Source: a virus. Taken from it: 64,000 nt of DNA. How positions within the stretch are numbered: position 1 is the first letter of the stretch; each line of letters starts with the position of its first letter. Below, piece after piece: positions 8,095-31,809 of this stretch. The position numbers and the translations under genes are program-made. The stretch covers positions 1 through 64,000 of the IMG/VR virus record IMGVR_UViG_3300023174_000074. One strand, 5' to 3'. Below the pieces are notes generated by a model. The model was not told the DNA's origin and searched no databases. It saw nothing but the letters and a program-made list of their open reading frames with translations.

Positions 8095-9492
8095 ATGATC
8101 GTAGACATTGAGAATAAAGGGGAATATCTTAAAGTATCACACTTCACGGAGGAAGGCGATTTATCTTTTTTAGATGTCCCTATTCCGGAATCAGAAAGAT
8201 TTGTTTGGGAAAAATGCAGTCCTAGCAATTCCTCTAAGGATAAAGAATGGAAAACCTGGACGGGTGACTCTGTAAAGAAACTAAAAACTAAAAAATACGA
8301 CAAATACAGGATGGCTCAGATTTTAATTGAGGCAGATCCTGAACTAACAGCTCCACTTTGGATATATCAAAATCCTAAGAAATATTTTGTCGATATTGAG
8401 GTTGAGATAACCGAGGATATGGCAGCAGCACTAGACACGGAGAATGCTAAAAATAGAGTCATTTCGATAGGTATTGCAACGGATAAATGTAAATTAATAG
8501 TTTTAGGTCTAGATCCACTGACTCCTGAACAGCAAGCTAGTATCTATAAGAAAACCAATGAATATTTCAAAAAGTTTGGCGACGAATGGTCTTTTAAATA
8601 TAAACAGTTTGAGACCGAATATGATATGTTGTACACATTCTTTAAAGAGCTTGGTCCTAAAATGCCAGTTATGACAGGATGGAACTGGCTAGGTTATGAC
8701 TGGCCCTATCTTATTAATAGAGCGAAGAAACTTGGGATTGATCCAAAAATTATTTCACCTGGCGGGTATCTTATAGGGAAACAACAGCTACCCGCTCATC
8801 TACTAATGTTTGACTACTTAGAAATCTACAAGAAGTGGGACAGAGTTATCAAGATTAAAGAAAGTAATAGATTGGATTACGTAGCAGACAAAGCAATAGG
8901 ACTTAAAAAAATTGAATATAATGGGACACTTCGAGACCTCTATCAATCAAACTTCGAAGACTTTATTTACTATAACGTAGTTGACTGCGCTTTAGTACAT
9001 TACATCGATCAGAAATTAAAGACAATGCAGACTTTCTTTAAAATAGCTATGATTAGCGGGGTGGAGATAAATAGATGCCTTTCTCCGGTTTGGTCAACAG
9101 AAGTATTAATGCTTAGGAAATTCTTAGATCGCAAACAGTTATTTGTCGTGGAAAACAGGGAGGAAGTACACGTAAAATTTGCGGGTGGATATGTTAAAGA
9201 ACCCATAACGGGACTACATGAATGGGTGGCATGCTATGACTTTGCGTCGCTATATCCAAATACAATGGTTCAGTGGAACATCTCACCAGAGGCATATAGA
9301 GGTAAAAATCCGGTAAATCCCAAAGATGATTGGATTAGGACAGCATCCGGAGCATGCTTTGCCTCCGACGAAGAAGATCCGATACTTAAAATAATTATTA
9401 AGGATTTGTACGCTAAACGTCGTAAAACGAAGGATAAAATGCTAGAGCTAGAATATGAAATCGATCAGCTGAAAAAAAAGATAGGTAAATAG
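8095..9492 (+). CDS. gp43: DNA polymerase family B (T4 gp43-like), N-terminal subunit
   Basis: The 465 residues cover the N-terminal and 3'-5' exonuclease domains and the first palm motif. Exo I is YFVDIEVEI (about 97-105), Exo II is TGWNWLGYDWPYL (about 193-205), Exo III is YNVVDCALVHYI (about 295-306) and polymerase motif A is YDFASLYPNTM (about 381-391). The protein stops in the fingers after a charged helix (LEYEIDQLKKKIGK). Motifs B and C are absent here and found at 28965-31809. A two-chain polymerase is implied, joined through the fingers helices. Split gp43 genes are known in some Aeromonas T4-like phages. Confidence 0.85.
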   Translation: MIVDIENKGEYLKVSHFTEEGDLSFLDVPIPESERFVWEKCSPSNSSKDKEWKTWTGDSVKKLKTKKYDKYRMAQILIEADPELTAPLWIYQNPKKYFVDIEVEITEDMAAALDTENAKNRVISIGIATDKCKLIVLGLDPLTPEQQASIYKKTNEYFKKFGDEWSFKYKQFETEYDMLYTFFKELGPKMPVMTGWNWLGYDWPYLINRAKKLGIDPKIISPGGYLIGKQQLPAHLLMFDYLEIYKKWDRVIKIKESNRLDYVADKAIGLKKIEYNGTLRDLYQSNFEDFIYYNVVDCALVHYIDQKLKTMQTFFKIAMISGVEINRCLSPVWSTEVLMLRKFLDRKQLFVVENREEVHVKFAGGYVKEPITGLHEWVACYDFASLYPNTMVQWNISPEAYRGKNPVNPKDDWIRTASGACFASDEEDPILKIIIKDLYAKRRKTKDKMLELEYEIDQLKKKIGK

Positions 9493-10107: not shown

Positions 10108-11088
10108 ATGAATCGTAACATTTTCATGCCCAGAGTGAATATTCTTCCCTATGAATATCCATCTCTTTTGGCATACAAAGACGCAATCCGCCACTCATAT
10201 TGGATTGACACAGAATTTAACTTTACCACAGATATTGATGATTTTAAAACTAAAATATCAGATCAGGAGCGTGAAGTTATAAAAAGATCAATGCTTGCGA
10301 TTGCTCAGATAGAGGTAAACGTTAAGACCTTTTGGGCTGATCTTTATAAGAGAATGCCAATAACTGAAATTGGCGATGTTGGTATGACCTTTGCTGAATC
10401 TGAAGTAAGACACAAAGACGCATACGCTAGATTAATTCGAATACTTGGTCTGGAAGAGGAATTTATGCATGTTGTTGAAATTCCTGCAATTAAAGACAGA
10501 ATAGCTTACCTAACTAAATATTTAGACGGTACAAGAAGTAAGGACAATAAAATGTATACTAAATCCGTTCTTTTATTTTCTTTATTCATAGAACACGTTA
10601 GCTTATTTAGTCAATTTTTGATTATGATGTCTTTCAATAAAGAAAAAAATCTTTTTAAGGGAATTTCAAATGTCGTTGAAGCTACTTCAAAAGAAGAAGA
10701 AATACACGGTAATTTTGGTTCAGAACTTATTAACATTATTAAAGAGGAAAATCCTGAATGGTTCGATAAAGAATTCGAACAATTGATCGATTCAGCTTGC
10801 AAAAAAGCGTATATTGCTGAATGTAAAATACTAGACTGGATCTTTGAACAAGGTGAACTAAGTTTCTTAACAAAAAATACTATTAAGAGTTTTATACAAA
10901 ATAGATTTAATAATTCTCTACAACGAATTGGCATGAAACCAGTTTTTGAAGTGGATTTTGCTGAAATAGAAAAAACTTTATGGTTCGATATTGAGATACT
11001 TTCAACTAAGGAGGGGGACTTTTTTTACAAGAAGCAAATCGAGTATTTTAAGAAAGGTAAGTCAATAACTGAAGATGATTTATTTTAA
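10108..11088 (+). CDS. nrdB: Ribonucleotide reductase small subunit NrdB (class Ia)
   Basis: The 326-residue protein carries the di-iron/tyrosyl-radical ligands in order: AQIEVNVKTFW, ESEVRHKDAYARL (Glu-x-x-His and the radical Tyr four residues after the His), LFIEHVSLFSQF and SKEEEIHGNFG (Glu-x-x-His). The C-terminus ends acidic and aromatic (ITEDDLF), as needed to bind NrdA. With NrdA it reduces ribonucleoside diphosphates. It is intact, unlike nrdA. Confidence 0.9.
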   Translation: MNRNIFMPRVNILPYEYPSLLAYKDAIRHSYWIDTEFNFTTDIDDFKTKISDQEREVIKRSMLAIAQIEVNVKTFWADLYKRMPITEIGDVGMTFAESEVRHKDAYARLIRILGLEEEFMHVVEIPAIKDRIAYLTKYLDGTRSKDNKMYTKSVLLFSLFIEHVSLFSQFLIMMSFNKEKNLFKGISNVVEATSKEEEIHGNFGSELINIIKEENPEWFDKEFEQLIDSACKKAYIAECKILDWIFEQGELSFLTKNTIKSFIQNRFNNSLQRIGMKPVFEVDFAEIEKTLWFDIEILSTKEGDFFYKKQIEYFKKGKSITEDDLF

Positions 11089-11095
11089 GGACGAA

Positions 11096-11326
11096 ATGGA
11101 CGAAATCAATAGCCAGGATTTCGTACTAGGCGAATACCTATATATGGGAATGGCTAAATGTTCAAACGCAACAGTCGTAATTTCTATAGGATATAAAATA
11201 GATTATTGCTACAAGAAGGCAATGGAATTTCAAGCTTTAAATGAAAATATTGTTTTTTATAAAATTAATAAAGTTAAGGTTGGGAAATTAAAAAAATGTA
11301 AAGAATTTTTAATTGATAAAAAATAA
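11096..11326 (+). CDS. Small hypothetical protein between nrdB and nrdA
   Basis: I prefer the start MDEINSQDFVLGEY at 11096; an in-frame ATG at 11075 overlaps nrdB by 14 bases. The 76-residue product is small and Lys-rich at the end (KVGKLKKCKEFLIDKK). No domain is recognised. It probably shares the nrd transcript. Confidence 0.5.
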   Translation: MDEINSQDFVLGEYLYMGMAKCSNATVVISIGYKIDYCYKKAMEFQALNENIVFYKINKVKVGKLKKCKEFLIDKK

Positions 11327-11341
11327 AAAAAATAAAAATAA

Positions 11342-12409
11342 ATGAGTTACGAAAAAAATTACTGGCTAAATGAAGACAGTAGAACATTTTTATCCAGAGG
11401 ATATATTACTGAATCACCAGAACAACGGATTAAAGATGTAGCAAACACCGCAGAAAAGTATCTAAAAATTGAAGGGTTTGCAAAAAAGTTTGAAGACTAT
11501 ATGACTAGAGGATTCTATAGTTTATCAACTCCTGTTTGGATTAACTTCGGTAAAGACAAAGGACTTCCTGTTAGTTGTTACGGTAGTAATGTTGATGATA
11601 CTTTAGATAGTATCTTAAATGGAAGCAGAGAAGTTGGAATGATGTCAAAATACGGAGGTGGAACTTCTGCATTTTTAGGAAACATCAGAGCAAGGGGTAC
11701 TGCAATTTCAACAGGTGGAAGTGCAGATGGGCCAGTTCACTATGCTAGATTATATGATACTACAGTTGATGTTTGTAAACAATCAGAGGCAAGAAGAGGA
11801 GCATGTGCAGTGTGGTTACCTGTTGAGCATAATGACATTTTAGAATTCTTAGATATTGGAACAGAAGGTAATCCCATTCAGAATTTACAATATGGGGTTA
11901 CTGTTACCGATAAATGGTTAGATGAAATGAAGGGTGGAGACTCAGATAAAAGAAAAATATGGGCTAAAATAATACAAAGACGTAGTGAATTTGGATTTCC
12001 GTATATCATGTTTAAGGACTCGTCAAATAGTAATTCACCATACAAAGAATTAGGACTTGAAATTACTGCAAGTAATTTATGTGTTGCTCCTTGGACTGAA
12101 GTAGATGTTAAAGTAGATGGAATTAAAAAAACAATGCCAATAATCATGTTAGATTGTTTATTTCAATATAACATGTATAAAACACTTGAAGTTAAATCAT
12201 TCAATACTAAAACATCTGAGGCTGAATATAAAAGAGTATTAGATAGTGCTATGACATCTAGCAAAGCTAAAGTTATGAAAATAACTGACGAGAATACTGG
12301 AAAGTCAATAACATGTACGCCTGATCATAAAGTGTATACAAGCAATAGAGGATATGTTATGGCTAAAGATTTAAAGGAAGATGATGAATTAGTTATAAAA
12401 AGTTCCTAA
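11342..12409 (+). CDS. nrdA: Ribonucleotide reductase large subunit, N-extein plus split N-intein
   Basis: Residues 1-246 are NrdA, including the active-site Cys in LPVSCYGSNVDDT and SEARRGACAVWLPVEH, ending at ITASNL. Residue 247 is intein Cys1 (CVAPWTEVDV), and the intein N-half runs to the stop with the block B motif TCTPDHKVYTSNRG. NrdA proteins normally read SNLCxEI here, and the C-half at 13420 supplies CSEIQLP after its own intein half. A functional NrdA therefore needs protein trans-splicing. An HNH endonuclease gene lies between the halves. SNL/C is a known intein site in NrdA. Confidence 0.9.
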   Translation: MSYEKNYWLNEDSRTFLSRGYITESPEQRIKDVANTAEKYLKIEGFAKKFEDYMTRGFYSLSTPVWINFGKDKGLPVSCYGSNVDDTLDSILNGSREVGMMSKYGGGTSAFLGNIRARGTAISTGGSADGPVHYARLYDTTVDVCKQSEARRGACAVWLPVEHNDILEFLDIGTEGNPIQNLQYGVTVTDKWLDEMKGGDSDKRKIWAKIIQRRSEFGFPYIMFKDSSNSNSPYKELGLEITASNLCVAPWTEVDVKVDGIKKTMPIIMLDCLFQYNMYKTLEVKSFNTKTSEAEYKRVLDSAMTSSKAKVMKITDENTGKSITCTPDHKVYTSNRGYVMAKDLKEDDELVIKSS

Positions 12410-12423
12410 AGTTTTATGTTCTG

Positions 12424-12477
12424 AGATAAAGTTACTAAATTATTTAGATATATAATTAAATAAAAATAACTTTATCT
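12424..12477 (+). promoter_or_regulatory. Hairpin with GATATATA in its loop, upstream of nrdA endonuclease gene
   Basis: AGATAAAGTTA (12424-12434) pairs perfectly with TAACTTTATCT (12467-12477), one base before the ATG at 12479. GATATATA (12447-12454) sits in the loop. The stem would cover the ribosome-binding region in read-through RNA, while RNA started from the loop would lack the 5' arm. T4 I-TevI is controlled by the same logic. Confidence 0.65.
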
Positions 12478-12478
12478 T

Positions 12479-13426
12479 ATGGACTATGAAAAAATATATA
12501 AGAATTTATGTACTTTGTGCCAAACAAAAAATATTAAAGAACGAATATCCAATAGAAATTTGAACGATAAACGCTTAAATGAAGATTACATCTATACTGA
12601 AAAACACCATATTATACCAAGACATGCCGGAGGAAATGATAATGTTCTAAATTTGGCTGAAATGCTACCGGAGGAACATTATATGGCACATTTATTAAGA
12701 TATAAAGCGTATAATGATAGAAATGATTTTTTAGCTATTAGATTTATGGTTAATGGCTATATTAATAAAAAAATATTAGCGGATAAGATCGATCTAAAAT
12801 TAAAAAATAAATTAGCTGCATCATTCAAACAAAATATTGCAATGTTTAGGAAAAACAATTCATGGCATAGCACTGAAGGTATTAAAAATATATCAGAAGC
12901 AAGAAAGGGTACTATGGTAGTTAAAGATAGTATAGAAAATAAAATCATAGGTTCAGTAGATATAAATCACCCTAATATCATATCAGGAAAATGGGTACAT
13001 CATACTAAAGGAAAAATATCGGTAATTTGTAAAAAAACAGGAATTAAAAAAAATATAACAGCTAAGGAATATGAAGATAATAAAGATAATTATGCCTACA
13101 ATGGAGGAAAGGTTAATGGTAAAAATAATCCAAGATTTAGCGGATTTTCCGACGAAGATTTAATTAAAATAGTGTCTGATTTTTCAATTAAAATGGATAT
13201 AGGATTTTTACTTCCATACCGTACTGTAGCAAATCATTATAGAAAATATGAAAAATATGAAAAACTACCAAAATCATTTAGTTCATTTAGATTCAATGGA
13301 TTGGGCGTTGTAGAATTACATAGACTAGCATCAGAAAAAACAGGATTAGAACTTAATATCTATTACTATAATGATCCAAAAATTAAAAACAAAATTAAAA
13401 ACAAAATTAAAAACATATTATGTTAA
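12479..13426 (+). CDS. Free-standing HNH homing endonuclease
   Basis: The 315-residue protein has an HNH core, EKHHIIPRHAGGNDN...NLAEMLPEEHYMAHLL (about 41-78), with the double His, the Asn and the third His. A long Lys/Asn-rich C-terminus includes NUMOD-like elements (GKNNPRFSGF and KNITAKEY). It lies between the two nrdA pieces, is not fused to either intein half, and overlaps the C-intein ATG by seven bases. It probably cuts intein-free nrdA alleles to spread itself and the split intein. Composition is even more AT-rich than the flanking nrd genes. Confidence 0.85.
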   Translation: MDYEKIYKNLCTLCQTKNIKERISNRNLNDKRLNEDYIYTEKHHIIPRHAGGNDNVLNLAEMLPEEHYMAHLLRYKAYNDRNDFLAIRFMVNGYINKKILADKIDLKLKNKLAASFKQNIAMFRKNNSWHSTEGIKNISEARKGTMVVKDSIENKIIGSVDINHPNIISGKWVHHTKGKISVICKKTGIKKNITAKEYEDNKDNYAYNGGKVNGKNNPRFSGFSDEDLIKIVSDFSIKMDIGFLLPYRTVANHYRKYEKYEKLPKSFSSFRFNGLGVVELHRLASEKTGLELNIYYYNDPKIKNKIKNKIKNILC

Positions 13427-14406
13427 AAATAGAATATTTAGAAGAAGAAATACCAGTATACGATATTACTGTTGAAGATAATCATAACTTTTATGCTGAT
13501 GATATTTTAGTGCATAACTGTTCAGAAATTCAATTACCTACGGATTCATTCAATTCCTTTGTGTGCTGTTTAGGTTCTATTAATCTACTGCACTGGGATG
13601 AAATTAAGGAAACCGATGCAATTGAAATTTATACGATGTTCTTAAATGCAGTTATGGACGAATTCATAAACAAGTCATTTAATATGCCCGGGATGAAAAG
13701 AGCATGGAGATTTGCAAATGATCATAGAGCGTTAGGACTTGGAGTACTAGGATATCATTCATTGTTTCAATCTAAACTAATCTCATTCGATTCTCTTAGA
13801 GCAAAGCAGTTAAACCACGAAATATTTTCAATATTAAAAGAAAAAAGTGAAGCGGCTTCAAGATTATTGCATGATGAGAAAGGTTACAAATCAATCAGAC
13901 CCGGATATGCTAATACAACGCTTATCGCAATTGCTCCAACAAAGAGTAGTTCATTCATTCTAGGACAGGTAAGTATGGGAATTGAACCGATTAAATCTAA
14001 TTATTTTATTAAGGATTTGGCGAAATCAAAAACAATTTATAAAAATCCTTTTTTAATCCAAGAGTTAGATAAGTATGACTTAAATACTCCGGAAGTCTGG
14101 GAGAGTATTTTAAAGAGAGATGGATCAGTTCAACATTTGGACTTTCCAACAAAGGGAGTTTTTAAATCATTTATTGAAATTTCTCCAAAGGAGATAATTT
14201 TACAGGCTGCTCAAAGACAAAAGCATATCGATCAGTCACAGTCTCTTAACCTAATGATACACCCTTCAGTGTCAGCAAAAGATATTAATCAATTATATCT
14301 CTATGCGCATGAGGAGGGGATTAAAACACTATATTACCAATTTAGTCAAAGCTCTGCCCAATCTTTTGCTAGGAATATATTGGAATGCTCTAGCTGTGAG
14401 GCTTAA
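13420..14406 (+). CDS. nrdA: Split C-intein plus ribonucleotide reductase large subunit C-extein
   Basis: Residues 1-33 are the C-intein: PVYDITVEDNHNFYADDI and the terminal LVHN, followed by Cys+1. The extein (from 13519) reads CSEIQLPTDSFNSFVCCLG, the normal NrdA continuation with active-site cysteines, and ends LECSSCEA with the CxxC pair that relays electrons from thioredoxin or glutaredoxin. The total extein (246 + 295 residues) is compact for NrdA, with no N-terminal ATP-cone visible. The start codon sits inside the end of the endonuclease gene. Confidence 0.9.
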   Translation: MLKIEYLEEEIPVYDITVEDNHNFYADDILVHNCSEIQLPTDSFNSFVCCLGSINLLHWDEIKETDAIEIYTMFLNAVMDEFINKSFNMPGMKRAWRFANDHRALGLGVLGYHSLFQSKLISFDSLRAKQLNHEIFSILKEKSEAASRLLHDEKGYKSIRPGYANTTLIAIAPTKSSSFILGQVSMGIEPIKSNYFIKDLAKSKTIYKNPFLIQELDKYDLNTPEVWESILKRDGSVQHLDFPTKGVFKSFIEISPKEIILQAAQRQKHIDQSQSLNLMIHPSVSAKDINQLYLYAHEEGIKTLYYQFSQSSAQSFARNILECSSCEA

Positions 14407-17689: not shown

Positions 17690-19420
17690 ATGAGTAAAGT
17701 TAATAAAACCATTGAAGTCCTTACAGATTTTGAACACATTATAAAAAGACCAACAATCTATGTTGGTAGTGTAAAAAGAAGCGAGGAGACACTTCCTATA
17801 ATTGAAGCAGGAATCATTAAAAGTGTCTTAAAAGAGCATTCAGTTGGAATGTATAAGTTGTTTGATGAAGTGTTTTCTAACTCAGTAGACGAAGCAAAAA
17901 GGATGTCTACGGCAATGAAGAAAATAATCGTCGATGTTGATATAAAGGAGAACTCAGTTTCTATTACAGATACTGGTGACGGATTTACCAACGGATCAGC
18001 AATAAACAAAAAGAGCGGGCTTAGCAATATCGAGACCGCTGTTTCAATGCTTAGAGCAGGATCAAATTTCGATAATGACTCAATTACGGAAACCCTTGTA
18101 GGAACTAATGGTATGGGTGTTAGCTTGGTTAATGCCTTATCTAATGTGTTTGAGATAGAAACTGCTAACTCGAAAGAGGTTTATTTGCAGACCTGGAAAA
18201 CTTTTAAGGCATCAGCTGCTAAGGTTACTTCAAAGGCAAAAAATAGACAAACAGGAACCCGTGTAACATTTACCCCCAACAACCAAGTTTTTGATAATTC
18301 CAAATGGGATTATCAGACAATAAAATCATATCTTTGTTTAAAGAAAAGAGTACTTGAGACCGAAGCTAAAACCGCAAACCTCAAGATAGATTTCACCTGG
18401 AACGGTAAAGCTGAAAACATAACAAGTTTACTTTCCCCTGATTGGACAGCAAAAACCCCTATTGGGGAAATTCTGATTTGGGAGAAGACCACAGAATCAG
18501 GATCATTCTCTTTTGTCAACAGTGCATTATGTACGGGTATCCATCAGAAGATAATCCTAGATAGAATCAATGGGCAACTGGAGGATTCTTTAGGTCACCA
18601 CTTCTATGACACTTTGATTATTCTAAATCTTTCTCCTGGTATAGTTCGATTCGGTGACCAGAATAAGACAAAGTTCGTTTCAAAGAGAGAAGAAGTGGAA
18701 CCAACAATTGCAAAACATTTTGATCCAATTTTAGGAAGATTCTTCAAGAGCGAAGTTTATAAGAACATCAAGAAGGCAGTTGATGCTAGAAAGAAAGAAA
18801 CAGAGTTAAAGAAGATTAGAAGGGATAAGAAATCAATTAGAATAAAACAATCGAATAAGTATTTTCCTTCAGCATCCTCCAGGCCAGAAACATTATTTAT
18901 TGTAGAAGGATTATGTATAGATGAAAATGAAAAAATAAATATATGGAGGGAAGGAAATCTTATAGAGACGACATTAAGAGATGTTATAATAGGCGATGAG
19001 GTGGTAACGCATGCTAATAGAATTAGAAAAATAGTAAATAAGCAGAGAAAATTAAAGGAATGTGTTTCTATTAAATTATCCGACGGTACTGTTATAAAAC
19101 AGCCTAAGACTCATCAATATTACACGTATAATAAAATCACAAAAGACTTCTCATTTAAAAGGATTGATCAAATTGACATTTCTCACGATTGCTTGGTTAA
19201 ATCCAATCTCGGCAGCTTTATAGGAACACTAGAGGTTGTTGATTTTGCTAAGTCAGGGGATGAAAAATATCCTAATATTATATTTCTAGAGGATAATTCT
19301 TGGTATCAATTCAGCGATACCCATAAATATTGTGTTTATGATATAAAAAGCTCTGGGTTTACTATGGAATTAGGTAAGGATATTTCAATTGGCAATCTTA
19401 TATGTGTTTTCGATTTTTAA
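17690..19420 (+). CDS. gp39: Type II topoisomerase large subunit (T4 gp39/GyrB-like), N-extein plus split N-intein
   Basis: Residues 1-408 are a GHKL ATPase/transducer and the beginning of TOPRIM: EVFSNSVDEAKR (Glu/Asn of the Bergerat fold), ITDTGDGF, TLVGTNGMGVSLVNALS and finally ETLFIVEGL. Residue 409 is intein Cys1 (CIDENEKINIW), and about 168 intein residues follow to the stop. The second half at 20844 restores EGL/SAMG, equivalent to the EGDSA motif of gyrases. The large N-intein contains two Thr-His motifs (QPKTHQYY and SDTHKYCVYD). Splicing with the C-intein is required to form the TOPRIM site. Confidence 0.85.
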   Translation: MSKVNKTIEVLTDFEHIIKRPTIYVGSVKRSEETLPIIEAGIIKSVLKEHSVGMYKLFDEVFSNSVDEAKRMSTAMKKIIVDVDIKENSVSITDTGDGFTNGSAINKKSGLSNIETAVSMLRAGSNFDNDSITETLVGTNGMGVSLVNALSNVFEIETANSKEVYLQTWKTFKASAAKVTSKAKNRQTGTRVTFTPNNQVFDNSKWDYQTIKSYLCLKKRVLETEAKTANLKIDFTWNGKAENITSLLSPDWTAKTPIGEILIWEKTTESGSFSFVNSALCTGIHQKIILDRINGQLEDSLGHHFYDTLIILNLSPGIVRFGDQNKTKFVSKREEVEPTIAKHFDPILGRFFKSEVYKNIKKAVDARKKETELKKIRRDKKSIRIKQSNKYFPSASSRPETLFIVEGLCIDENEKINIWREGNLIETTLRDVIIGDEVVTHANRIRKIVNKQRKLKECVSIKLSDGTVIKQPKTHQYYTYNKITKDFSFKRIDQIDISHDCLVKSNLGSFIGTLEVVDFAKSGDEKYPNIIFLEDNSWYQFSDTHKYCVYDIKSSGFTMELGKDISIGNLICVFDF

Positions 19421-19422
19421 GA

Positions 19423-19453
19423 TCGAGGGAGATATATAAAATAAAGCCTTCGA
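19423..19453 (+). promoter_or_regulatory. Hairpin with GATATATA loop upstream of the topoisomerase large-subunit endonuclease gene
   Basis: TCGAGGG (19423-19429) pairs with CCTTCGA (19447-19453), one G-U included. GATATATA (19431-19438) lies in the loop and the ATG at 19456 follows two bases after the stem. This is the same architecture as at 12424. Confidence 0.55.
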
Positions 19454-19455
19454 CT

Positions 19456-20850
19456 ATGAAAAAAATAAAATATGAAGTTAAAATAGGTCAATTTATTACA
19501 GATTTTAAAATTTCCGATCTTAATGATTCGTACAATGATCAAAAGATTCTTAGATACATGAAAGCATCTCTAATGAAAAGCGGGATTAATTATAATGATT
19601 TAATTAAAGAAAATCTAAATATTGACGTTGGAAAATGCCCGTTCTGTGGATCCGATAGTAAATATGAGATTTCATATTTAATAGATAGGCCTAAAAAAGT
19701 ACTAGATATACTCGGTATAGAGTACATAGTAAAAGGTGGAATGATAAATTATCATTGTAAGAGCGGGAAAAATAATTGTTCAGGCAGCCGTCTAAATTCA
19801 AATTCTATAGAATATATTTCTAATGCTTTTAAGATAAGCAAAGAAAAAGCTAGAGCATATATTATTGACCGTAATAAATCCCCCTTTTATGCGAAAAATC
19901 ACGATAGCAAGGAAGATTACAAGAAATTTCAAACCCGAAATTTGGATTGGTATATCTCTAAATATGGAGATTATGAGGGTAGATCAAGATATCAGAATTT
20001 TAAGGATAAAGTATCCAACGGGAATACAAAGGAATCTATAATAGCAAACCACGGAATAGATTCTTATAATGATATGATTAGAAGAAAGAAGGTTTGTACA
20101 ATTGAGCATTTTATTTCTAAATATGGCGAAGAATTAGGAAAATCTAAATTTGATGAATACAAGAAGTCTTTAGGGCTAACAAGAGATAATTATATAAAAA
20201 AATTTGGAAAGGATTCTTGGGATAAAAGAGCAGAAATCATAAAATATAAGAAATCTCTAGAATTCTATATTCAGAAGCTTGGAGAAGAAGAGGGGCGTAA
20301 AGATTTCAGAACTTTAAGGGAATCCTATAGCTTTAATAAGGAGAAGTATATTGAGAAGTACGGAGAAGAAAAATGGATAGAAAGATATAAGAATTTTAAT
20401 CTAAATTTTTATAGTAAAGAGGCATCGGTTTTCCTTAATAAGCTATTGGGTATGCTTATAGATCTAGAATTGCCGTTGAACAATATTAAGATGGAAAAGG
20501 ATGAGTTTTTTCTATGGGATACCGAATACAGAAGGATTTATTTTTATGATTTGTATTTCGAATGCTTTTCTAAAAAGATAATTGTTGAATATGATAATGA
20601 GTTTTGGCATCCAAAAAACGAAAATGATACCAGTGCTTGGGATAAACTTAAAATTGATCATAAATTTACAAAATCAGAAAAGATAGAGTATGACGAAAGA
20701 AAGAGAATGTTTGCTAAGTATAAGGGATATGATATAATAAATATTTCATACTCAGGACAAAAAAACCCACTAAGAAAAAATAACGAGGAACTTTGGGAGC
20801 CCTTATTGATAGAAGTTTTAAACAAAATAAAAAATATTATAAGATGTTAA
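19456..20850 (+). CDS. Free-standing homing endonuclease, Vsr/PD-(D/E)XK-like
   Basis: I start at MKKIKYEVKIGQFITD (19456), after the regulatory hairpin. There is an N-terminal zinc-type cluster (CPFCGSD...YHCKSGKNNC). Repeated ~30-residue modules with the pattern 'Y-I-x-K-Y/F-G-E-x-x-G/W' (WYISKYGDYEGRS, HFISKYGEELGKS, NYIKKFGKDSW, FYIQKLGEEEGRK, KYIEKYGEEKW) probably bind DNA. The C-terminal nuclease has RIYFYDLYFECFSKKIIVEY, EFWHP and YDERKRMFAKYKGYDIINIS, as in the Vsr-like endonucleases reported with fractured split-intein genes. It overlaps the C-intein start by seven bases. Confidence 0.75.
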   Translation: MKKIKYEVKIGQFITDFKISDLNDSYNDQKILRYMKASLMKSGINYNDLIKENLNIDVGKCPFCGSDSKYEISYLIDRPKKVLDILGIEYIVKGGMINYHCKSGKNNCSGSRLNSNSIEYISNAFKISKEKARAYIIDRNKSPFYAKNHDSKEDYKKFQTRNLDWYISKYGDYEGRSRYQNFKDKVSNGNTKESIIANHGIDSYNDMIRRKKVCTIEHFISKYGEELGKSKFDEYKKSLGLTRDNYIKKFGKDSWDKRAEIIKYKKSLEFYIQKLGEEEGRKDFRTLRESYSFNKEKYIEKYGEEKWIERYKNFNLNFYSKEASVFLNKLLGMLIDLELPLNNIKMEKDEFFLWDTEYRRIYFYDLYFECFSKKIIVEYDNEFWHPKNENDTSAWDKLKIDHKFTKSEKIEYDERKRMFAKYKGYDIINISYSGQKNPLRKNNEELWEPLLIEVLNKIKNIIRC

Positions 20851-21551
20851 CAATAGAACAAGAGAATTTTTTCCAGATTGTAGAAATTGAAAGTATATCC
20901 GAATCATTAGAAGTTTTAAATTGCATAGATTTAACAGTAGAGGATGACGAAAGCTTTGTTATCGGAAATGGCATTATTTCACATAATTCAGCTATGGGGT
21001 CTATACTACAGAAAAGAGATCCTAAGAAAGAAGCAGTCTATGCTCTAAAAGGAAAGATCAAGAATGCAAGGAGTTTATCAGATCTTTCAGACAACAGGGA
21101 GATATTAGAATTAATGCAGATCCTAAATCTAGATCCGGAGGGGCAAAATATACAATGTCCATTTGAGAGAGTCGTTATAGCTACCGATCAGGATCCTGAC
21201 GGAGCTCACATTACATCACTATTAATAAACCTATTTTATCTTTGGTTTCCCTGGATGATTAAGCAAGGTAGAATCCAATTCTTAGAAACACCATTGGTTA
21301 CCGTTGGGGATAAGGCTAAGAAATATTTTTATTCACTAGAGGAGTTTAAAAAAGGTACGGGAAGATCAGATAAAGGTAATGTCAGATACCTTAAGGGATT
21401 GGGATCTCTATCGTTGGAAGACTGGGATCATGTTATGAAGAATAAAAAAATAACAGTTCTAGTTGAGGACAAGAAAACTAAGTATCATTTAGATATGGCT
21501 TTTGGTAAGTCCTCAATGGAAAGAAAAAAGTGGTTAAGCTCAGTTGTTTAA
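20844..21551 (+). CDS. gp39: Split C-intein plus topoisomerase large subunit C-extein
   Basis: I start at MLTIEQENFF (20844), overlapping the endonuclease stop; an earlier in-frame ATG at 20793 lies inside that gene. Residues 1-48 are the C-intein, ending in VIGNGIISHN. The extein from 20988 begins SAMGSILQKRDPKKEAVYAL and carries the TOPRIM metal motif ATDQDPDGAHI and YLKGLGSLSLEDW (gyrase YKGLGE equivalent). It ends at 21551, making a short large subunit like T4 gp39 rather than full GyrB. Confidence 0.88.
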   Translation: MLTIEQENFFQIVEIESISESLEVLNCIDLTVEDDESFVIGNGIISHNSAMGSILQKRDPKKEAVYALKGKIKNARSLSDLSDNREILELMQILNLDPEGQNIQCPFERVVIATDQDPDGAHITSLLINLFYLWFPWMIKQGRIQFLETPLVTVGDKAKKYFYSLEEFKKGTGRSDKGNVRYLKGLGSLSLEDWDHVMKNKKITVLVEDKKTKYHLDMAFGKSSMERKKWLSSVV

Positions 21552-24469: not shown

Positions 24470-24976
24470 ATGTCGACAAACTTAAACATATCAGACCAGA
24501 TAAATCAACAATACAGAACTTACGCATTGTATGTTTTGCAAAGTAGAGGTATACCAAATTTCTATGATGCTTTAACTCCTGTTCAAAGGTTAATCCTAGA
24601 AAATTCTCCAGGTAAATTCAACAAGACTATTGGCTTGGTCGGAGAGGTAATTAAAACAGGGCTATATCACCACGGGGATTGTTTTTTATATAACACAAAG
24701 ATAAACCTAGCAGACGGAACACAGGTTTCGATAGGAGATTGGGCGGAAAAATTTCCGGATATTAAATTATTCGTATATTGCGTAGACGAAAACGGAGAAA
24801 AAACAATATCTTTAGGGCATTCCCCAAGGGTGGGTCAGATTACTGATGAAATGTTTGAGATCGAACTTGAAAATGGGGAGATATTTAAGTGCACAAAAAA
24901 TCACCCGTTTCTAACTAATAGAGGATGGATTAAAGCTGAGGATTTATTAGGTTCGGATGAGATAGTAAGCATCTAA
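24470..24976 (+). CDS. gp52: Type II topoisomerase medium subunit (T4 gp52/GyrA-like), N-extein plus split N-intein
   Basis: Residues 1-70 are the start of a GyrA-type breakage-reunion domain (YALYVLQSRGIPNFYDALTP, VGEVIKTGLYHHGD). Residue 71 is intein Cys1; the N-intein (CFLYNTKINLADGTQVSIGD) has block B in FKCTKNHPFLTNRGWIKAED and stops at 24976. The other half at 25900 continues SSLSGAISKLARPFG, so the join restores the YHxHGDSS motif of gyrase A. Only 70 extein residues lie in this piece, so it has no activity without trans-splicing. Confidence 0.88.
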   Translation: MSTNLNISDQINQQYRTYALYVLQSRGIPNFYDALTPVQRLILENSPGKFNKTIGLVGEVIKTGLYHHGDCFLYNTKINLADGTQVSIGDWAEKFPDIKLFVYCVDENGEKTISLGHSPRVGQITDEMFEIELENGEIFKCTKNHPFLTNRGWIKAEDLLGSDEIVSI

Positions 24977-24983
24977 TAAATTT

Positions 24984-25023
24984 TTATCATCACGGGATAT
25001 ATAAAAATAAACCGTGATGATAA
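24984..25023 (+). promoter_or_regulatory. Hairpin with GATATATA loop upstream of the topoisomerase medium-subunit endonuclease gene
   Basis: TTATCATCACGG (24984-24995) and CCGTGATGATAA (25012-25023) form a perfect 12-bp stem. GATATATA (24996-25003) is in the loop. The endonuclease ATG (25017) is inside the 3' arm, so folding hides the start codon itself. Confidence 0.7.
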
Positions 25024-25916
25024 AGAAATGCTTATATTGTTCTAATAGATTTAAACAAAAAACTAGTTTTGTGAAATACTGTTCACCTAAATGCAAGTCT
25101 AGAGATAGATTTATAAAAATCCAATATGGAGAAAAATTTTTTAATATCTGGAAAGAAAATGCAATAAAATATCCAGATTTTTATAGTACGATAAAAAGAC
25201 CAAAGGATAGATTTAAAAATAAATGTCTAATGTGCGAAAAAGAATTTATCGAATTTAGAAAGTGCTGTAGTAGTGAATGTTCCCTGAAATTAAAAAAACA
25301 GACAACATTTAATTCTACTGGATCTGAGCATAATTTTGCAAAAAATTCAACATCAAGAACAGAGATGGATGATAATCTATTTAAAAATTTCGGAATAGTA
25401 AATATCTTTCAGAGGGAGGATGTAAAGTTGAAATTAAAAAATACGTGGATAGAAAATCACGGGGTTTCAAATCCTACCATTAATGCAAGCATTAGAAATA
25501 AGGTAAGAAAAACTAATGAAAATTCGGGGCGTTGGTTAAAAGCACACGAAAAAGATGAATTTGAGCTATATTGTTATCACGTAAAACAATTTACTAATTG
25601 GAATATGAATAGATTTGCATTAAAACTATGGGGGAATGAATTTTATAAGAATTGGGGATTTTATGAAAATCATCTAGATCATATATTTTCCAAAAAAGAA
25701 GGGTTTATGCAAAAAATCCCTGCTAATATAATAGGTAGCTTTGTAAATCTTAGAATGCTTCCACGTAAGGAAAATTTATCAAAGGGTATAAAATGTGATA
25801 TTACTAGCGAAGATTTATATAATCGTTATTTATTATTTGAAGAAGAGAATCCCGAAATATTAAGAGAAATAGAAACTATATTTAAAGAATCATTAAAATA
25901 TGTCAATAAAAATTAA
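25017..25916 (+). CDS. Free-standing HNH homing endonuclease with zinc-finger N-terminus
   Basis: From MIKKCLYCSNRF there are two Cys pairs of zinc-finger type (CLYCSNRF...KYCSPKC; CLMCEKEF...CCSSEC). The C-terminal HNH-type site is NHLDHIFSKKEGF followed by GSFVNLRMLPRKENLSKG. A GTG at 25014 is also possible but ATG 25017 is simpler. It lies between the two pieces of the topoisomerase medium subunit and overlaps the C-intein start by 17 bases, like the nrdA-linked endonuclease. Confidence 0.78.
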   Translation: MIKKCLYCSNRFKQKTSFVKYCSPKCKSRDRFIKIQYGEKFFNIWKENAIKYPDFYSTIKRPKDRFKNKCLMCEKEFIEFRKCCSSECSLKLKKQTTFNSTGSEHNFAKNSTSRTEMDDNLFKNFGIVNIFQREDVKLKLKNTWIENHGVSNPTINASIRNKVRKTNENSGRWLKAHEKDEFELYCYHVKQFTNWNMNRFALKLWGNEFYKNWGFYENHLDHIFSKKEGFMQKIPANIIGSFVNLRMLPRKENLSKGIKCDITSEDLYNRYLLFEEENPEILREIETIFKESLKYVNKN

Positions 25917-27219
25917 ATCAATAAAAAAAATTATCCTGGATTCTCCAAAGCCTTTTTATGATATAACGGTAGAAAAATATGCAAATTTTTCTATTGGTAA
26001 ATCTGGTATAGTAGTTCACAATTCATCTCTGTCCGGTGCTATATCAAAATTAGCTAGGCCTTTTGGCTGTGCTTTTAGCGTTCTTGAAGGTGATGGATTT
26101 TTTGGTTCACCCGTTAATCCAAGTCCATCTGCTCCCAGATACACGTCGGTTAAGATCAATAGCAGGATCAAAGATTTTTTATTCAAAAACTATGATCTTA
26201 ATGACAAGAACGAAGAGGGTGGACACGATTGGCTTCATGTTGAAGTTCCTATTGGATTACTAACTCACGTTGTTGGTATTGCAGTAGGGTACAGAAGTAA
26301 CATACTTCCTAGAAAATTAGAGGATATCATAGAGTATCTAAACGGATCTCCAAAATTGCTTAAGCCCTATTTTAAAGATTTCTCTGGTAAGATATCAAAA
26401 TTTAGAAATGAGGATAATACGTGGTTATTCGAAAGCGGATTTGATGTTGATGCTAAGAAAAAAACAATACACATCTATGATTTACCACCAGTAATGAGAT
26501 ATGATAGCTTTATTAATAAGCTAGATTCTAAATTAGAAAACTCTGGATGCGAATACAGAATAGAAAACAGATCACAAAGTAAGTGCGATCTGATAGTCTC
26601 ATTAAGAGGAATGGATAATGCAAGGTTTACCGAAATTGTTGAAATCATATCAAGACTATGTAAGATTATAGTTACCGAGGATGTTATATTTATTCGTGAC
26701 GGTGGAGTTATGGAATTCACTTCTGTCAAAGAGTACTTAGATCATTTCAAGGGTCATCTTGAATTGGTTAAATTAAAAAGGTTATTGAAGGATCTTAGCG
26801 ACTATTCTAAAGAGCTACAGTTTTTAGAAGCAAAACTAAAGTTTCTTAATTTCATGATATCTAAAAAAAGAACAAACGATGAGATCATAGCATTTCTCGG
26901 AGAATTTGAAAATTGGATATCACAGAGATTGCAGAGGATTGAAATAATAAGGCTAAGCTCTGACCACATTAAACAAACCGAGATTGATATCAAAGGGTTA
27001 AAAGAAAAAATAACCGAAGCTAAAAAGCTTGTAAAGGATCAGGAAAAAATACACAAAGAAGCGGCTAAGAAAATACAGGCATTGGGTAAAATTAGGTCAT
27101 TCAAACCCATGATAAATCTATTCGAAACAAATCAAATAGAAGGTATAGAGGTTTATCAGGTACCTGATGAAGAGGATACTGTAATTTCGGATGAAAATTT
27201 AGAAGAAAACGAAATTTAA
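25900..27219 (+). CDS. gp52: Split C-intein plus topoisomerase medium subunit C-extein
   Basis: Residues 1-41 are the C-intein (PFYDITVEKYANFSIGKSG, ending VVHN). The extein from 26023 begins SSLSGAISKLARPFG and contains the active-site Tyr in SAPRYTSVKINSRIKDF, which forms the covalent DNA link. The C-terminal third is a long coiled coil (QTEIDIKGLKEKITEAKK), as in T4 gp52, with an acidic tail. There is no GyrA beta-pinwheel, so the enzyme should be a T4-type topoisomerase rather than a supercoiling gyrase. Confidence 0.88.
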   Translation: MSIKIKSIKKIILDSPKPFYDITVEKYANFSIGKSGIVVHNSSLSGAISKLARPFGCAFSVLEGDGFFGSPVNPSPSAPRYTSVKINSRIKDFLFKNYDLNDKNEEGGHDWLHVEVPIGLLTHVVGIAVGYRSNILPRKLEDIIEYLNGSPKLLKPYFKDFSGKISKFRNEDNTWLFESGFDVDAKKKTIHIYDLPPVMRYDSFINKLDSKLENSGCEYRIENRSQSKCDLIVSLRGMDNARFTEIVEIISRLCKIIVTEDVIFIRDGGVMEFTSVKEYLDHFKGHLELVKLKRLLKDLSDYSKELQFLEAKLKFLNFMISKKRTNDEIIAFLGEFENWISQRLQRIEIIRLSSDHIKQTEIDIKGLKEKITEAKKLVKDQEKIHKEAAKKIQALGKIRSFKPMINLFETNQIEGIEVYQVPDEEDTVISDENLEENEI

Positions 27220-28964: not shown

Positions 28965-29672
28965 ATGAATCAGGAAGAAATTAATGAAATAGAAGAAAGA
29001 ATAGAAAAACTCACTTCTCTAAAGAACGAGTTAAAGAACGAGGAACAGGCTGTAAAATTAACAATGAACTCGATATATGGGGCCATCGGAAACAATTGGT
29101 TTGTTTGTTTTAATCCTGACGTTGCCGAAGCTGTTACCTTACAGGGACAGGACCTGATTAAATATTCAGAAAAAGCGCTACATAAATACTTCCATGAGTA
29201 TTGGCATGTTGACAAGGAGCTTCATGAAAAGCTAGAATTAACTACAGTTAAAAGAGTTTCCAAACCTCTCGTAATCTATGGGGACACGGATTCAGTTTTT
29301 TCCGAGAGTATTCTTACGATACAGAATGGTTTGGGTGAGGAAAGAAAAATCCCGATTGGCTATTTATTTAACGAATTGAAAATAACTGAAGATGCATATT
29401 GTGACAATAGAGGTAATGAAATAATAGAACCAGATAATTTGGCATCTCTAAATTATATTAATGAATATCTAACATTTTCACCAATCAAAAAAATAATAAG
29501 ACATAAAGTCAGAAAAGCAAAATGGAAACTTGTTACTGAAACTGGTAAGGAAGTGATAGTAACTAATGACCATTCTCTTACTGTATTTAGAGACGGGATT
29601 AAGATCCACATAAAGGCAAGCGAAATTAATATTGATACCGATCTAGTTTTAGAGGTTTCTGTCGATATATAA
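28965..29672 (+). CDS. gp43: DNA polymerase family B, middle piece (motifs B and C) plus split N-intein
   Basis: It begins with a charged coiled-coil helix (EEINEIEERIEKLTSLKNEL) that should pair with the end of the 8095-9492 protein. Motif B KLTMNSIYGAIGNN and the start of motif C, VIYGDTD, follow. The intein begins right after GDTD with Ser1 (SVFSESILTIQNG, codon at 29292), the same site and same Ser-Val start as archaeal pol-c inteins. Block B is TNDHSLTVFRDG. The stop is at 29672. Exteins resume as SNYVTFQEV at 30988, giving YGDTDSNYV. Confidence 0.88.
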   Translation: MNQEEINEIEERIEKLTSLKNELKNEEQAVKLTMNSIYGAIGNNWFVCFNPDVAEAVTLQGQDLIKYSEKALHKYFHEYWHVDKELHEKLELTTVKRVSKPLVIYGDTDSVFSESILTIQNGLGEERKIPIGYLFNELKITEDAYCDNRGNEIIEPDNLASLNYINEYLTFSPIKKIIRHKVRKAKWKLVTETGKEVIVTNDHSLTVFRDGIKIHIKASEINIDTDLVLEVSVDI

Positions 29673-29699
29673 TACAAATTATATAATATATGGAGACAG
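29656..29699 (+). promoter_or_regulatory. Weak hairpin with GATATATA loop upstream of the polymerase endonuclease gene
   Basis: CTGTC (29659-29663) can pair with GACAG (29695-29699), with further partial pairing outside. GATATATA (29664-29671) directly follows the 5' arm and the ATG (29690) lies inside the enclosed region. The stem is weaker than at the other endonuclease genes. Confidence 0.35.
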
Positions 29700-30847
29700 C
29701 AATAATAAAAATGTTAATTACAAAATACAGAAGGGATAAAACAATAGAATCATGGAAGGTCCTCGAAAACCTAATAGAAGATAAATCATACTGTAGAGAT
29801 TGCAACGGATCTATATTCTATCCAAATTCATTAATTCGTTTAGGTAAAGACGGAAATGTAAAATATGAAACTAATAATCCCTGTTCAAGATCATTTAAGA
29901 ATGTAGGTGGTAATAAATATTATTTATCTGTATGTTCATTTTGTCTGGATAAAAAATTTGATGAATATTCGGGTATGAATAAATCTAGAGTATTCAATGT
30001 TATGAACAGAATAACCAGATATGCATATAATATTCCTGATGATGTTGCTAATGAATTTACTAAAACTACCGCAGTGACATTGGAAAATTTGGTGAAAAAA
30101 TATGGTGAAAATGACGGTAAACTTAGATGGGAAAAATATAGAAATTTACAGGCTGTTACTAATACATTCGAATATAAGAAAGAAAAATACGGATGGAACA
30201 AATCAGACTTTGATGAATTTAACCAATCTAGAGCTATAACAGAAAAGAACCTTGTAAATAGACATGGTGAGGAGAAAGGTAAAGAAATATTTAGCGAATA
30301 TTGTAAAAAACAAACAACTAACGGTAAGACACTGGAATGGTTCATAATGAAACATGGATATGCTGACGGTCTGGCTATTTTTGATAAGATGCTTAATGCT
30401 AAACTAAAGGGTATGGAAGGAATTGGTGCATATTCTAATATGTCCCAGGATTTTTTTGATTCATTAGATGCAGAATTCGGTAATATTTTTAAAACAATAT
30501 ATTATAGAAAAAACGGAGAAGAAAAGAGAATAGTGATAAATGTTGATGGTAAATATAAATTATATTACCTAGATTATTTTATACCTGAGCTGAATATAGC
30601 TGTAGAATTTTTTGGTAATTATTATCATGCAAATCCACAAAAGTATAAAGATCCAGAAGCTGTTATTAAATTTTCTAGACTTTATAATGTTGGCGAAATT
30701 TGGGAAAGAGATAGATTAAGAATAGAAAATTTAGAAAAACATCACGGAATAAGAACTATAGTTGTATGGGAATCAGATTACTATAAAAATAAAAATAATG
30801 ATAAATTTTATAAGAATATTGTTAAATTATGTATAGAGAAGAAATAA
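29690..30847 (+). CDS. Free-standing homing endonuclease, Vsr-like
   Basis: The 385-residue protein begins METAIIKMLITKYRRD. It has the same repeated modules as the endonuclease at 19456 (NLVKKYGENDGKLRWEKY, NLVNRHGEEKGKEIFSEY, WFIMKHGYADGLAIFDKM). The Vsr/PD-(D/E)XK-like nuclease at its C-terminus is clear: YYLDYFIPELNIAVEFFGN, YYHANP, WERDRLRIENLEKHHGI and TIVVWESDY. It lies between the intein halves and overlaps the next start by 19 bases. It probably drives homing of the polymerase split intein. Confidence 0.82.
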   Translation: METAIIKMLITKYRRDKTIESWKVLENLIEDKSYCRDCNGSIFYPNSLIRLGKDGNVKYETNNPCSRSFKNVGGNKYYLSVCSFCLDKKFDEYSGMNKSRVFNVMNRITRYAYNIPDDVANEFTKTTAVTLENLVKKYGENDGKLRWEKYRNLQAVTNTFEYKKEKYGWNKSDFDEFNQSRAITEKNLVNRHGEEKGKEIFSEYCKKQTTNGKTLEWFIMKHGYADGLAIFDKMLNAKLKGMEGIGAYSNMSQDFFDSLDAEFGNIFKTIYYRKNGEEKRIVINVDGKYKLYYLDYFIPELNIAVEFFGNYYHANPQKYKDPEAVIKFSRLYNVGEIWERDRLRIENLEKHHGIRTIVVWESDYYKNKNNDKFYKNIVKLCIEKK

Positions 30848-31809
30848 AAGCAACAACCAGATTTTCAAAAATAGTATCATGCGAACAAATTGGTGAATTT
30901 GAGGACGAGTATGTATATGATCTCGAAATAGACGAGGAGGGTTATGATAATCAAACTTTTTTTGCTAATGACATATTGGTGCATAATTCTAATTATGTGA
31001 CCTTTCAAGAGGTAGTAGATTCTTGTGATTGGAAAGGTGATCCTAAAGATCTTATCCTACAGATAAACGAACATAGGCTAGCAGAATATCTTAAGACATG
31101 TTTTGAAAAGTATTCTAAAAAATGGGGTACTCAAAACTACCAGGATTTTGAGATGGAGAACTTGGCTATAAATGGTATATTCTTAGGAAAGAAGAAGTAT
31201 GTTACTAATCTGGTTTATGCAGACGGCCTACATATGGAGCCGCTCTCACAAATGAAAACAGTAGGGGTGGAAATGATTAAAGGTGGAACCCCACCTTTCG
31301 TAAGAGATAAATTGATCTACCTGACAAAATTCATTTTCTCTAAAGGACGTAGTTTTGATATCAGAGAGTTTGTGAAGGAGCTTAAGGAGATTAAAAGGGA
31401 TTTTAAAATACAGGAACCTAGGAACATCTCTGCTGCAATAGCAATTAATAACTATGAAAAGTATATCCTCAATGACGTAACGGAATTAGAAGTCACAAAG
31501 GGGTGTCCTATTCAAGTTAGAGCAGCAGCTTACCATAACTATTTGCTGAATAGATCCAAATACAAAGACAAATACCCGTTAATTAGAAGTGGAGAAAAAA
31601 TCAACTATTATTTCGTTAAGACTAAGTCCATTATGGACAACAACGTTTTTGCATATTCCCAAGGAACATATCCTTATGAATATGCACCACCTATCGACCA
31701 CGATATGCAGTTTACAAAGACCATATTAGATCCAATCAATCGATTTATTGAGGTTATGGGATATAATAGTATAAGTCCAAATTTATTCCTAATAAACGCT
31801 CTATTTTAA
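30829..31809 (+). CDS. gp43: Split C-intein plus DNA polymerase family B C-terminal part
   Basis: Residues 1-53 form the C-intein (EYVYDLEIDEEG, TFFANDI, LVHN). The extein from 30988 reads SNYVTFQEVVDS, completing motif C (YGDTDSNYV), then continues through the palm and thumb: IFLGKKKYVTNLVY (the conserved KKRY-type motif) and GVEMIKGGTPPFVRD. It ends with SPNLFLINALF, which resembles the clamp-binding C-terminal peptide of T4 gp43. The complete enzyme therefore needs three primary products: 8095-9492, 28965-29672 and this one. Confidence 0.88.
   Translation: MYREEIKATTRFSKIVSCEQIGEFEDEYVYDLEIDEEGYDNQTFFANDILVHNSNYVTFQEVVDSCDWKGDPKDLILQINEHRLAEYLKTCFEKYSKKWGTQNYQDFEMENLAINGIFLGKKKYVTNLVYADGLHMEPLSQMKTVGVEMIKGGTPPFVRDKLIYLTKFIFSKGRSFDIREFVKELKEIKRDFKIQEPRNISAAIAINNYEKYILNDVTELEVTKGCPIQVRAAAYHNYLLNRSKYKDKYPLIRSGEKINYYFVKTKSIMDNNVFAYSQGTYPYEYAPPIDHDMQFTKTILDPINRFIEVMGYNSISPNLFLINALF

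What the first reader, a model, noticed from the sequence alone, without database searches (positions are those of the whole stretch)
11342..14406. nrdA fractured by a split intein with an HNH endonuclease gene between the halves
Seen: the NrdA frame ends SNL + CVAPWTEVDV... stop; a separate HNH gene follows; a third frame begins with a C-intein ending LVHN and continues CSEIQLP. Joining the exteins restores SNLCSEI exactly. Known: fractured genes with split inteins and free-standing endonucleases were described from marine metagenomes. Inferred: trans-splicing makes the active enzyme. An N-intein of about 109 and a C-intein of 33 residues is a compact pair of possible biochemical interest.
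Basis: partly seen in the sequence, partly recalled or inferred. Interest (0 to 1): 0.8.

Follow-up and report, generated by a model that had tools for sequence, protein, structure and literature searches.

The report
Phage enzyme gene split by intein
A phage gene for the DNA-building enzyme ribonucleotide reductase is cut in two by a homing-endonuclease gene, and the halves carry matching intein pieces expected to join the protein again; three more genes in the same phage are broken the same way, and a relative shows one of these inteins still in one piece, which helps explain how split inteins form.

Summary
nrdA is split before its catalytic cysteine (SNL^CSEI). A 109-aa N-intein and a 33-aa C-intein flank a free-standing HNH endonuclease gene. 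More than 60 distinct related alleles lack the insert and join exactly there. The kind is known ("fractured genes", Dassa 2009; about 7 nrdA cases cited in PMC3653736). The same HNH element occurs in other contigs and in the sequenced Yersinia phage TG1; elsewhere the same nrdA site holds the intein contiguous, split without endonuclease, or split with a GIY-YIG gene.

For the polymerase, a relative (L300) carries the same intein uninterrupted. The window's version equals it plus a clean 1,171-nt endonuclease insertion, no bases lost or duplicated, with near-identity centred on the insertion point. This fits an endonuclease gene homing into a contiguous intein and splitting it.

In all four genes the endonuclease stop overlaps the downstream half's start codon. 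A predicted RNA hairpin covers the HNH start, as in I-TevI and Aeh1 mobE. Trans-splicing is inferred, not shown. Verdict: a new member of a known kind, useful mainly because intermediates of split-intein formation are visible.

The parts
11342..12409 (+). nrdA N-half: N-extein 11342-12079 (246 aa, ends SNL) + N-intein 12080-12406 (109 aa) + stop
   Evidence: NCBIfam NrdE-prime 2.2e-85; TIGR01445 over cut-off
12412..12491 (+). predicted RNA hairpin (-21 kcal/mol, z -4.1) that buries the HNH start codon
   Evidence: same position, different sequence, in L002, L005, L087, L177 and TG1 (z -5.6 to -7.8)
12479..13426 (+). free-standing HNH homing-endonuclease gene, 315 aa (HH43-44, N58, H67 invariant in 6 relatives)
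   Evidence: (PHROG 655, 1.3e-22); dN/dS about 0.2
13420..14406 (+). nrdA C-half: C-intein 13420-13518 (33 aa, ends VHN) + C-extein 13519-14403 (295 aa, starts CSEI); start codon overlaps HNH stop by 7 nt
   Evidence: TIGR01443 39.8 bits
10108..11088 (+). nrdB (small subunit) upstream
   Evidence: PF00268 2.4e-57
17690..19420 (+). fractured topoisomerase II large subunit, N-half: extein 17690-18913 (ends VEGL) + N-intein 18914-19417
   Evidence: (phrog_543)
19402..20850 (+). endonuclease-like gene between the topo II large-subunit halves (phrog_22677)
20844..21551 (+). topo II large subunit, C-half: C-intein 20844-20987 + extein from 20988 (SAMGSI)
24470..24976 (+). fractured topoisomerase II medium (GyrA-like) subunit, N-half: extein 24470-24679 (ends YHHGD) + N-intein 24680-24973
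   Evidence: phrog_551
25014..25916 (+). endonuclease-like gene between the topo II medium-subunit halves (GTG start)
   Evidence: phrog_3339, phrog_12131 homing endonuclease, weak
25900..27219 (+). topo II medium subunit, C-half: C-intein 25900-26022 + extein from 26023 (SSLSG)
28965..29672 (+). fractured DNA polymerase B, N-half: extein 28965-29291 (ends YGDTD) + N-intein 29292-29669
29668..30838 (+). clean 1,171-nt insertion into the polymerase intein relative to contiguous L300; carries endonuclease gene 29690-30847, whose stop lies in intein DNA
30829..31809 (+). DNA polymerase C-half: C-intein 30829-30987 + extein from 30988 (SNYVTF)

Best explanation
nrdA is a fractured gene. The N-half protein ends in an N-intein and the C-half protein begins with the matching C-intein. 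The two pieces associate after translation and splice in trans, joining SNL to CSEI to give a normal 541-residue NrdA. Splicing places the catalytic (E. coli C439-equivalent) cysteine, which is also the intein's +1 nucleophile, into an intact active site. The HNH gene between them is a homing endonuclease with its own start and stop; it is expected to cut intein-free or endonuclease-free alleles in co-infecting phages so that the element is copied in. Its start is held shut by an RNA hairpin, and its stop overlaps the start of the C-half, so translation of the C-half is probably coupled to it. Shown: anatomy, conserved splicing residues, exact intein-free alleles, purifying selection, repeated gain or loss on the nrdA tree, and (by prediction) hairpin conservation. 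Inferred: splicing, cleavage, mobility, hairpin function, translational coupling.
For: Both intein halves recognised by curated models. Nearest solved relative of the N-intein is the natural split intein NrdJ-1, E 1.2e-13. Exact extein junction in 68 distinct intein-free rows. Same layout in L002, L003, L004, L005, L024, L087/L088, L177 and sequenced phage TG1, C-halves 35-87% identical. dN/dS: N-extein 0.06, N-intein 0.13, HNH 0.21. The window allele nests within intein-free alleles; at least 3 gains or losses are forced by starred branches. HNH matches PHROG 655 homing endonuclease. Hairpin in all six examined members. No second nrdA in the record.
Against: No splicing, cleavage or homing was measured. 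The record may be incomplete, so an intact nrdA elsewhere is not excluded. The HNH target site is unknown; a sequence resembling the nrdA insertion site upstream of the HNH gene gave only suggestive statistics and is explained at least as well by pairing with the HNH start. The tree was a quick search with a single support measure.
Confidence: 0.9

Rival explanations
1. Genes-in-pieces without splicing: the two NrdA halves assemble non-covalently, as in Aeromonas phage Aeh1 where mobE splits nrdA without an intein, and the intein pieces are inert tails.
For: Aeh1 shows a split nrdA can work unspliced (PMC2988022; PMC3653736).
Against: Complete set of splicing residues, curated intein models hit at both junctions, low dN/dS in the intein, exact extein junction in intein-free alleles. 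Without splicing the catalytic cysteine would keep a 33-residue C-intein fused to it.
Confidence: 0.05
2. The gene is decaying: a broken, non-functional nrdA with intein and endonuclease remnants.
For: Some related sites do show eroded endonuclease genes, e.g. L276 and L399.
Against: All frames are intact over 3 kb in several contigs, and exteins, intein and HNH gene are under purifying selection.
Confidence: 0.03
3. Assembly or frameshift artefact.
For: None found.
Against: Same arrangement in independent contigs and in the separately sequenced phage TG1.
Confidence: 0.01
4. The sequence GTTTTATGTTCTGAGATA just after the N-intein stop (12411-12428) is an operator resembling the homing site, so the HNH protein represses its own gene as I-TevI does.
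For: 12/15 match to the nrdA insertion site in the window (shuffle p 0.0085) and 14/15 in L087 (no shuffle of 2,000 matched); I-TevI precedent of a homing-site-like operator (PMC2988022).
Against: No significance in L177 (p 0.12) or TG1 (p 0.49). The same bases form the base of the hairpin that pairs with the HNH start codon, which would conserve them anyway. The comparison was chosen after seeing the data.
Confidence: 0.15

Closest known systems
Fractured genes with split inteins and free-standing endonucleases (Dassa et al. 2009, NAR 37:2560; text not held here; cited in PMC3653736 as reporting 7 nrdA and 2 nrdJ)
   Same: Enzyme gene cut in two by a split intein with an endonuclease gene between the halves, in phage DNA-metabolism genes.
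   Different: Here the endonuclease is a T4 Mob-like HNH; four such genes lie in one phage genome; contiguous, endonuclease-free and intein-free alleles are found for some of the same sites.
Yersinia phage vB_YenM_TG1 nrdA (KP202158)
   Same: Same site, N-intein 40%, C-half 35% and HNH 38% identical over their alignments, same hairpin position.
   Different: Annotated only as two NrdA pieces and an HNH endonuclease; its NrdA is a distant relative with additional N-terminal sequence.
Pseudomonas phage MIJ3 split PolB intein with HNH gene, compared by its authors with the contiguous SCTP-2 PolB mini-intein (PMC6892783)
   Same: DNA polymerase interrupted by a split intein with endonuclease; a contiguous counterpart in another phage.
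   Different: In the present case contiguous L300 and the fractured window copy are near-identical at the DNA level around the break, so the insertion junction is resolved to the base.
Aeromonas phage Aeh1 nrdA split by mobE
   Same: HNH gene inside nrdA, hairpin control of the endonuclease.
   Different: No intein; halves work without ligation.
NrdJ-1 split intein (PDB 8ubs)
   Same: Closest solved sequence to the N-intein.
   Different: Sits in another ribonucleotide reductase class.

Membership tests
Fractured gene (split intein + free-standing endonuclease) | Conserved enzyme gene broken in two at an intein site | tested here: met
Fractured gene (split intein + free-standing endonuclease) | N- and C-halves end and begin with intein halves bearing splicing residues | tested here: met
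   Cys1, TxxH, His-Asn, Cys+1
Fractured gene (split intein + free-standing endonuclease) | Endonuclease gene with its own start and stop between the halves | tested here: met
Fractured gene (split intein + free-standing endonuclease) | Uninterrupted homologues join exactly at the junction | tested here: met
   gap 0 in 68 distinct rows
Fractured gene (split intein + free-standing endonuclease) | Trans-splicing gives the ligated enzyme | not testable with these tools
   needs co-expression
HNH homing endonuclease (T4 Mob-like, PHROG 655) | Sequence membership and HNH residues | tested here: met
   (1.3e-22); HH43-44, N58, H67 invariant
HNH homing endonuclease (T4 Mob-like, PHROG 655) | Site-specific cleavage and homing | not testable with these tools
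   only indirect: patchy distribution on the nrdA tree
I-TevI/mobE-type control of endonuclease | Hairpin sequestering the start or ribosome-binding site | tested here: met
   by prediction in six members
I-TevI/mobE-type control of endonuclease | Late promoter in the hairpin loop | tested here: inconclusive
   TATAAATA in TG1 and TTAAATACTATT in L177; none clear in the window
I-TevI/mobE-type control of endonuclease | Homing-site-like operator | tested here: inconclusive
Aeh1-type genes-in-pieces | No intein or intron at the break | tested here: not met

The most novel reading that the evidence does not exclude
Phage split inteins arise when an ordinary endonuclease gene homes into the inside of a contiguous mini-intein, with intein DNA itself as the target. 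The inserted gene supplies the stop for the N-half and the start for the C-half, and the process can reverse or erode. This window's polymerase locus with L300, and the several states of the nrdA site, would be direct snapshots of the cycle, with four mutually divergent split inteins working in one infected cell.
Probability: 0.45. Interest if true: 0.7.

Novelty: new member of a known kind. Interest (0 to 1): 0.52.

Why it matters
How continuous inteins become split ones is an open question. Here the before and after forms of one intein differ, at the break, by a single clean endonuclease insertion, so the step can be rebuilt and tested. The four divergent split inteins in one phage are also candidates for a naturally non-cross-reacting set for protein ligation, and the nrdA pair could be produced for testing at once.

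Tried and rejected
A copied homing site as operator or relic after the N-intein stop: looked striking by eye, but only two of four lineages pass a shuffle test and the hairpin explains the same bases; kept as a lead only. HNH relatives in cellular genomes: one scan of genome contigs found none. AlphaFold model of the HNH protein: mean pLDDT 60, not used. A PDB sequence search with the polymerase endonuclease gave only weak matches to photosystem II CP47, taken as chance. Dassa et al. 2009 is not held, so details of it rest on citing papers or memory. The phages nearest by topoisomerase and polymerase carry a different NrdA, about 33% identical, so they cannot serve as the intein-free control for nrdA; the intein-free nrdA alleles come from other contigs. 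Calling four fractured genes unique was rejected: the L087 contig also has four C-intein hits.

Full report
Check of the observation. The three frames are present at the stated coordinates. The first frame is an NrdA N-terminal part followed by an intein N-terminal splicing region; the third is an intein C-terminal splicing region followed by the NrdA C-terminal part. The exteins are 246 and 295 residues. The N-intein has 109 residues and the C-intein 33. The ligated sequence SNL-CSEI is what uninterrupted relatives have: in 68 distinct relatives the two exteins are exactly adjacent. The +1 cysteine is, from established knowledge of NrdA, the counterpart of the E. coli C439 thiyl-radical cysteine, so the enzyme should not work until the C-intein is removed. 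Only one nrdA lies in the 126,808-base viral record, which may be a fragment.

The endonuclease. The middle gene matches PHROG 655, homing endonuclease, at 1.3e-22, and has no Pfam hit. HH43-44, N58 and H67 are invariant in six relatives. Comparison with L002 gives dN/dS of about 0.21 for HNH, 0.13 for the N-intein and 0.06 for the N-extein, so all parts are maintained.

Where else the element occurs. The same layout is in L002, L003, L004, L005 and L024 (exteins about 87% identical), in L087/L088 (58% and 49%), in L177, whose NrdA is a longer type, and in the sequenced T4-like Yersinia phage TG1, where it is annotated as two NrdA pieces and an HNH gene. A quick nrdA tree places the window allele among 11 intein-free alleles, away from the L002 group, which itself holds an intein-free allele; at least three gains or losses are forced by starred branches. 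A different, contiguous intein with a LAGLIDADG-like body occupies the same site in other relatives (the LAGLIDADG assignment is by eye). One split intein at one site can therefore be associated with different endonucleases.

Control of the HNH gene. Between the N-half stop and the HNH start there is a strong predicted hairpin in all six members tested (z -4.1 to -7.8), with the start codon inside or beside the stem, or the Shine-Dalgarno sequence inside it in TG1 and L177. The stems differ in sequence between lineages but not in position. TG1 has TATAAATA in the loop. This is the arrangement described for I-TevI and Aeh1 mobE (PMC2988022). A stretch at 12411-12428 resembles the nrdA insertion site and could be an I-TevI-like operator, but the statistics are mixed and the stretch also forms the base of the hairpin. 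The HNH stop overlaps the C-half ATG by 7 nt, so the C-half is probably translated by coupling.

Three more fractured genes. Intein searches of the record gave four C-intein sites, all in this window. Besides nrdA they are in the topoisomerase II large subunit (VEGL^SAMG), the topoisomerase II medium subunit (YHHGD^SSL) and DNA polymerase B (YGDTD^S). Each has an endonuclease-like gene between the halves, and in each its stop overlaps the start of the C-half, by 7, 17 and 19 nt. Nearly all relatives lack these insertions, several at 93-98% extein identity. The four N-inteins are 19-30% identical to each other and the C-inteins 32-50%, so the pairs may not cross-react; this was not tested. The topo II large-subunit N-intein has no clear TxxH block and no Pfam intein hit, so it is the least certain. 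Multiple fractured genes are not unique to this phage: the L087 contig has two in a replicative helicase plus nrdA and a clamp-loader gene, and the L005 contig has nrdA, a ClpB-like and a RecA-like gene (identities read by eye).

The polymerase pair. Relative L300 has the polymerase intein as one uninterrupted 174-residue mini-intein in a single frame. At the break, the window copy equals it with a 1,171-nt insertion: L300 reads GTCGATA-AAGAAATAAAAGC, the window reads GTCGATA-[insert]-AAGAAATAAAAGC, without loss or duplication. The insert supplies the N-half stop and the C-half ATG, and the endonuclease's last codons and stop are read from intein DNA. Identity to L300 is 40-45 of 45 per block from about 160 nt left to about 240 nt right of the insertion, 20-23 of 45 over the first 135 nt of the intein, and mostly 34-44 of 45 in the exteins. 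Synonymous differences are 0.11-0.22 near the insertion against 0.58 in the C-extein and 0.31 in the N-extein. This is what co-conversion around a break inside the intein would leave, and suggests that the endonuclease gene homes into the contiguous intein. The alternatives are precise loss of the gene in L300, or selection on the DNA sequence near the insertion. At the topo II medium-subunit site, L276 keeps a split intein with only the tail of the endonuclease left, a later stage.

Comparison with the known. Fractured genes of this kind were described by Dassa et al. 2009 (not held; cited in PMC3653736 as finding 7 nrdA and 2 nrdJ). A split PolB intein with an HNH gene is reported in phage MIJ3, compared there with a contiguous mini-intein in phage SCTP-2 (PMC6892783). 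The nearest solved intein is NrdJ-1. The nrdA finding is therefore a new member of a known kind. What adds value is the four-fold occurrence in one genome, the element's presence in a sequenced phage, and above all the resolved junction between a contiguous intein and its fractured form.

Noticed in passing
window 8095-9492 and 28965-31809: DNA polymerase B is also divided into two unlinked genes about 19 kb apart (exonuclease/early palm piece, and later palm piece), with no intein at that break; the second gene starts at the same point in relatives L301, L302, L304, recalling gene 43A/43B splits in Aeromonas phages. With the intein break the polymerase is in three pieces.
   Followed up: partly
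L300:707-2374: Contiguous polymerase mini-intein, the uninterrupted counterpart of the window's fractured one.
   Followed up: yes
L276 around 8891-9435: Topo II medium subunit with a split intein and only the C-terminal tail of the endonuclease left (decay stage).
   Followed up: partly
L353, L354, L399: nrdA split intein at the same site with no endonuclease: 57-78 nt from the N-half stop to the C-intein motif; L399 keeps part of a regulatory hairpin arm.
   Followed up: partly
L168 (Klebsiella phage KP13-7) and L169 (Campylobacter phage WX1): nrdA appears fractured twice, near the NLC site (GIY-YIG gene in KP13-7) and again at a second intein site downstream, with different genes between the pieces.
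   Followed up: partly
L002:3083-3937: A second HNH gene ends where nrdA begins in relatives L002, L003 and L024; the window has only a small ORF (11075-11326) there.
   Followed up: no
G000:98986-99171 (outside the window): A second HNH-like stretch (E 1.1e-7) elsewhere in the phage record.
   Followed up: no
window 29292-29430: First ~45 codons of the polymerase intein are highly divergent between the window, L303 and L300 (28-40% aa identity) while the rest is nearly identical.
   Followed up: partly
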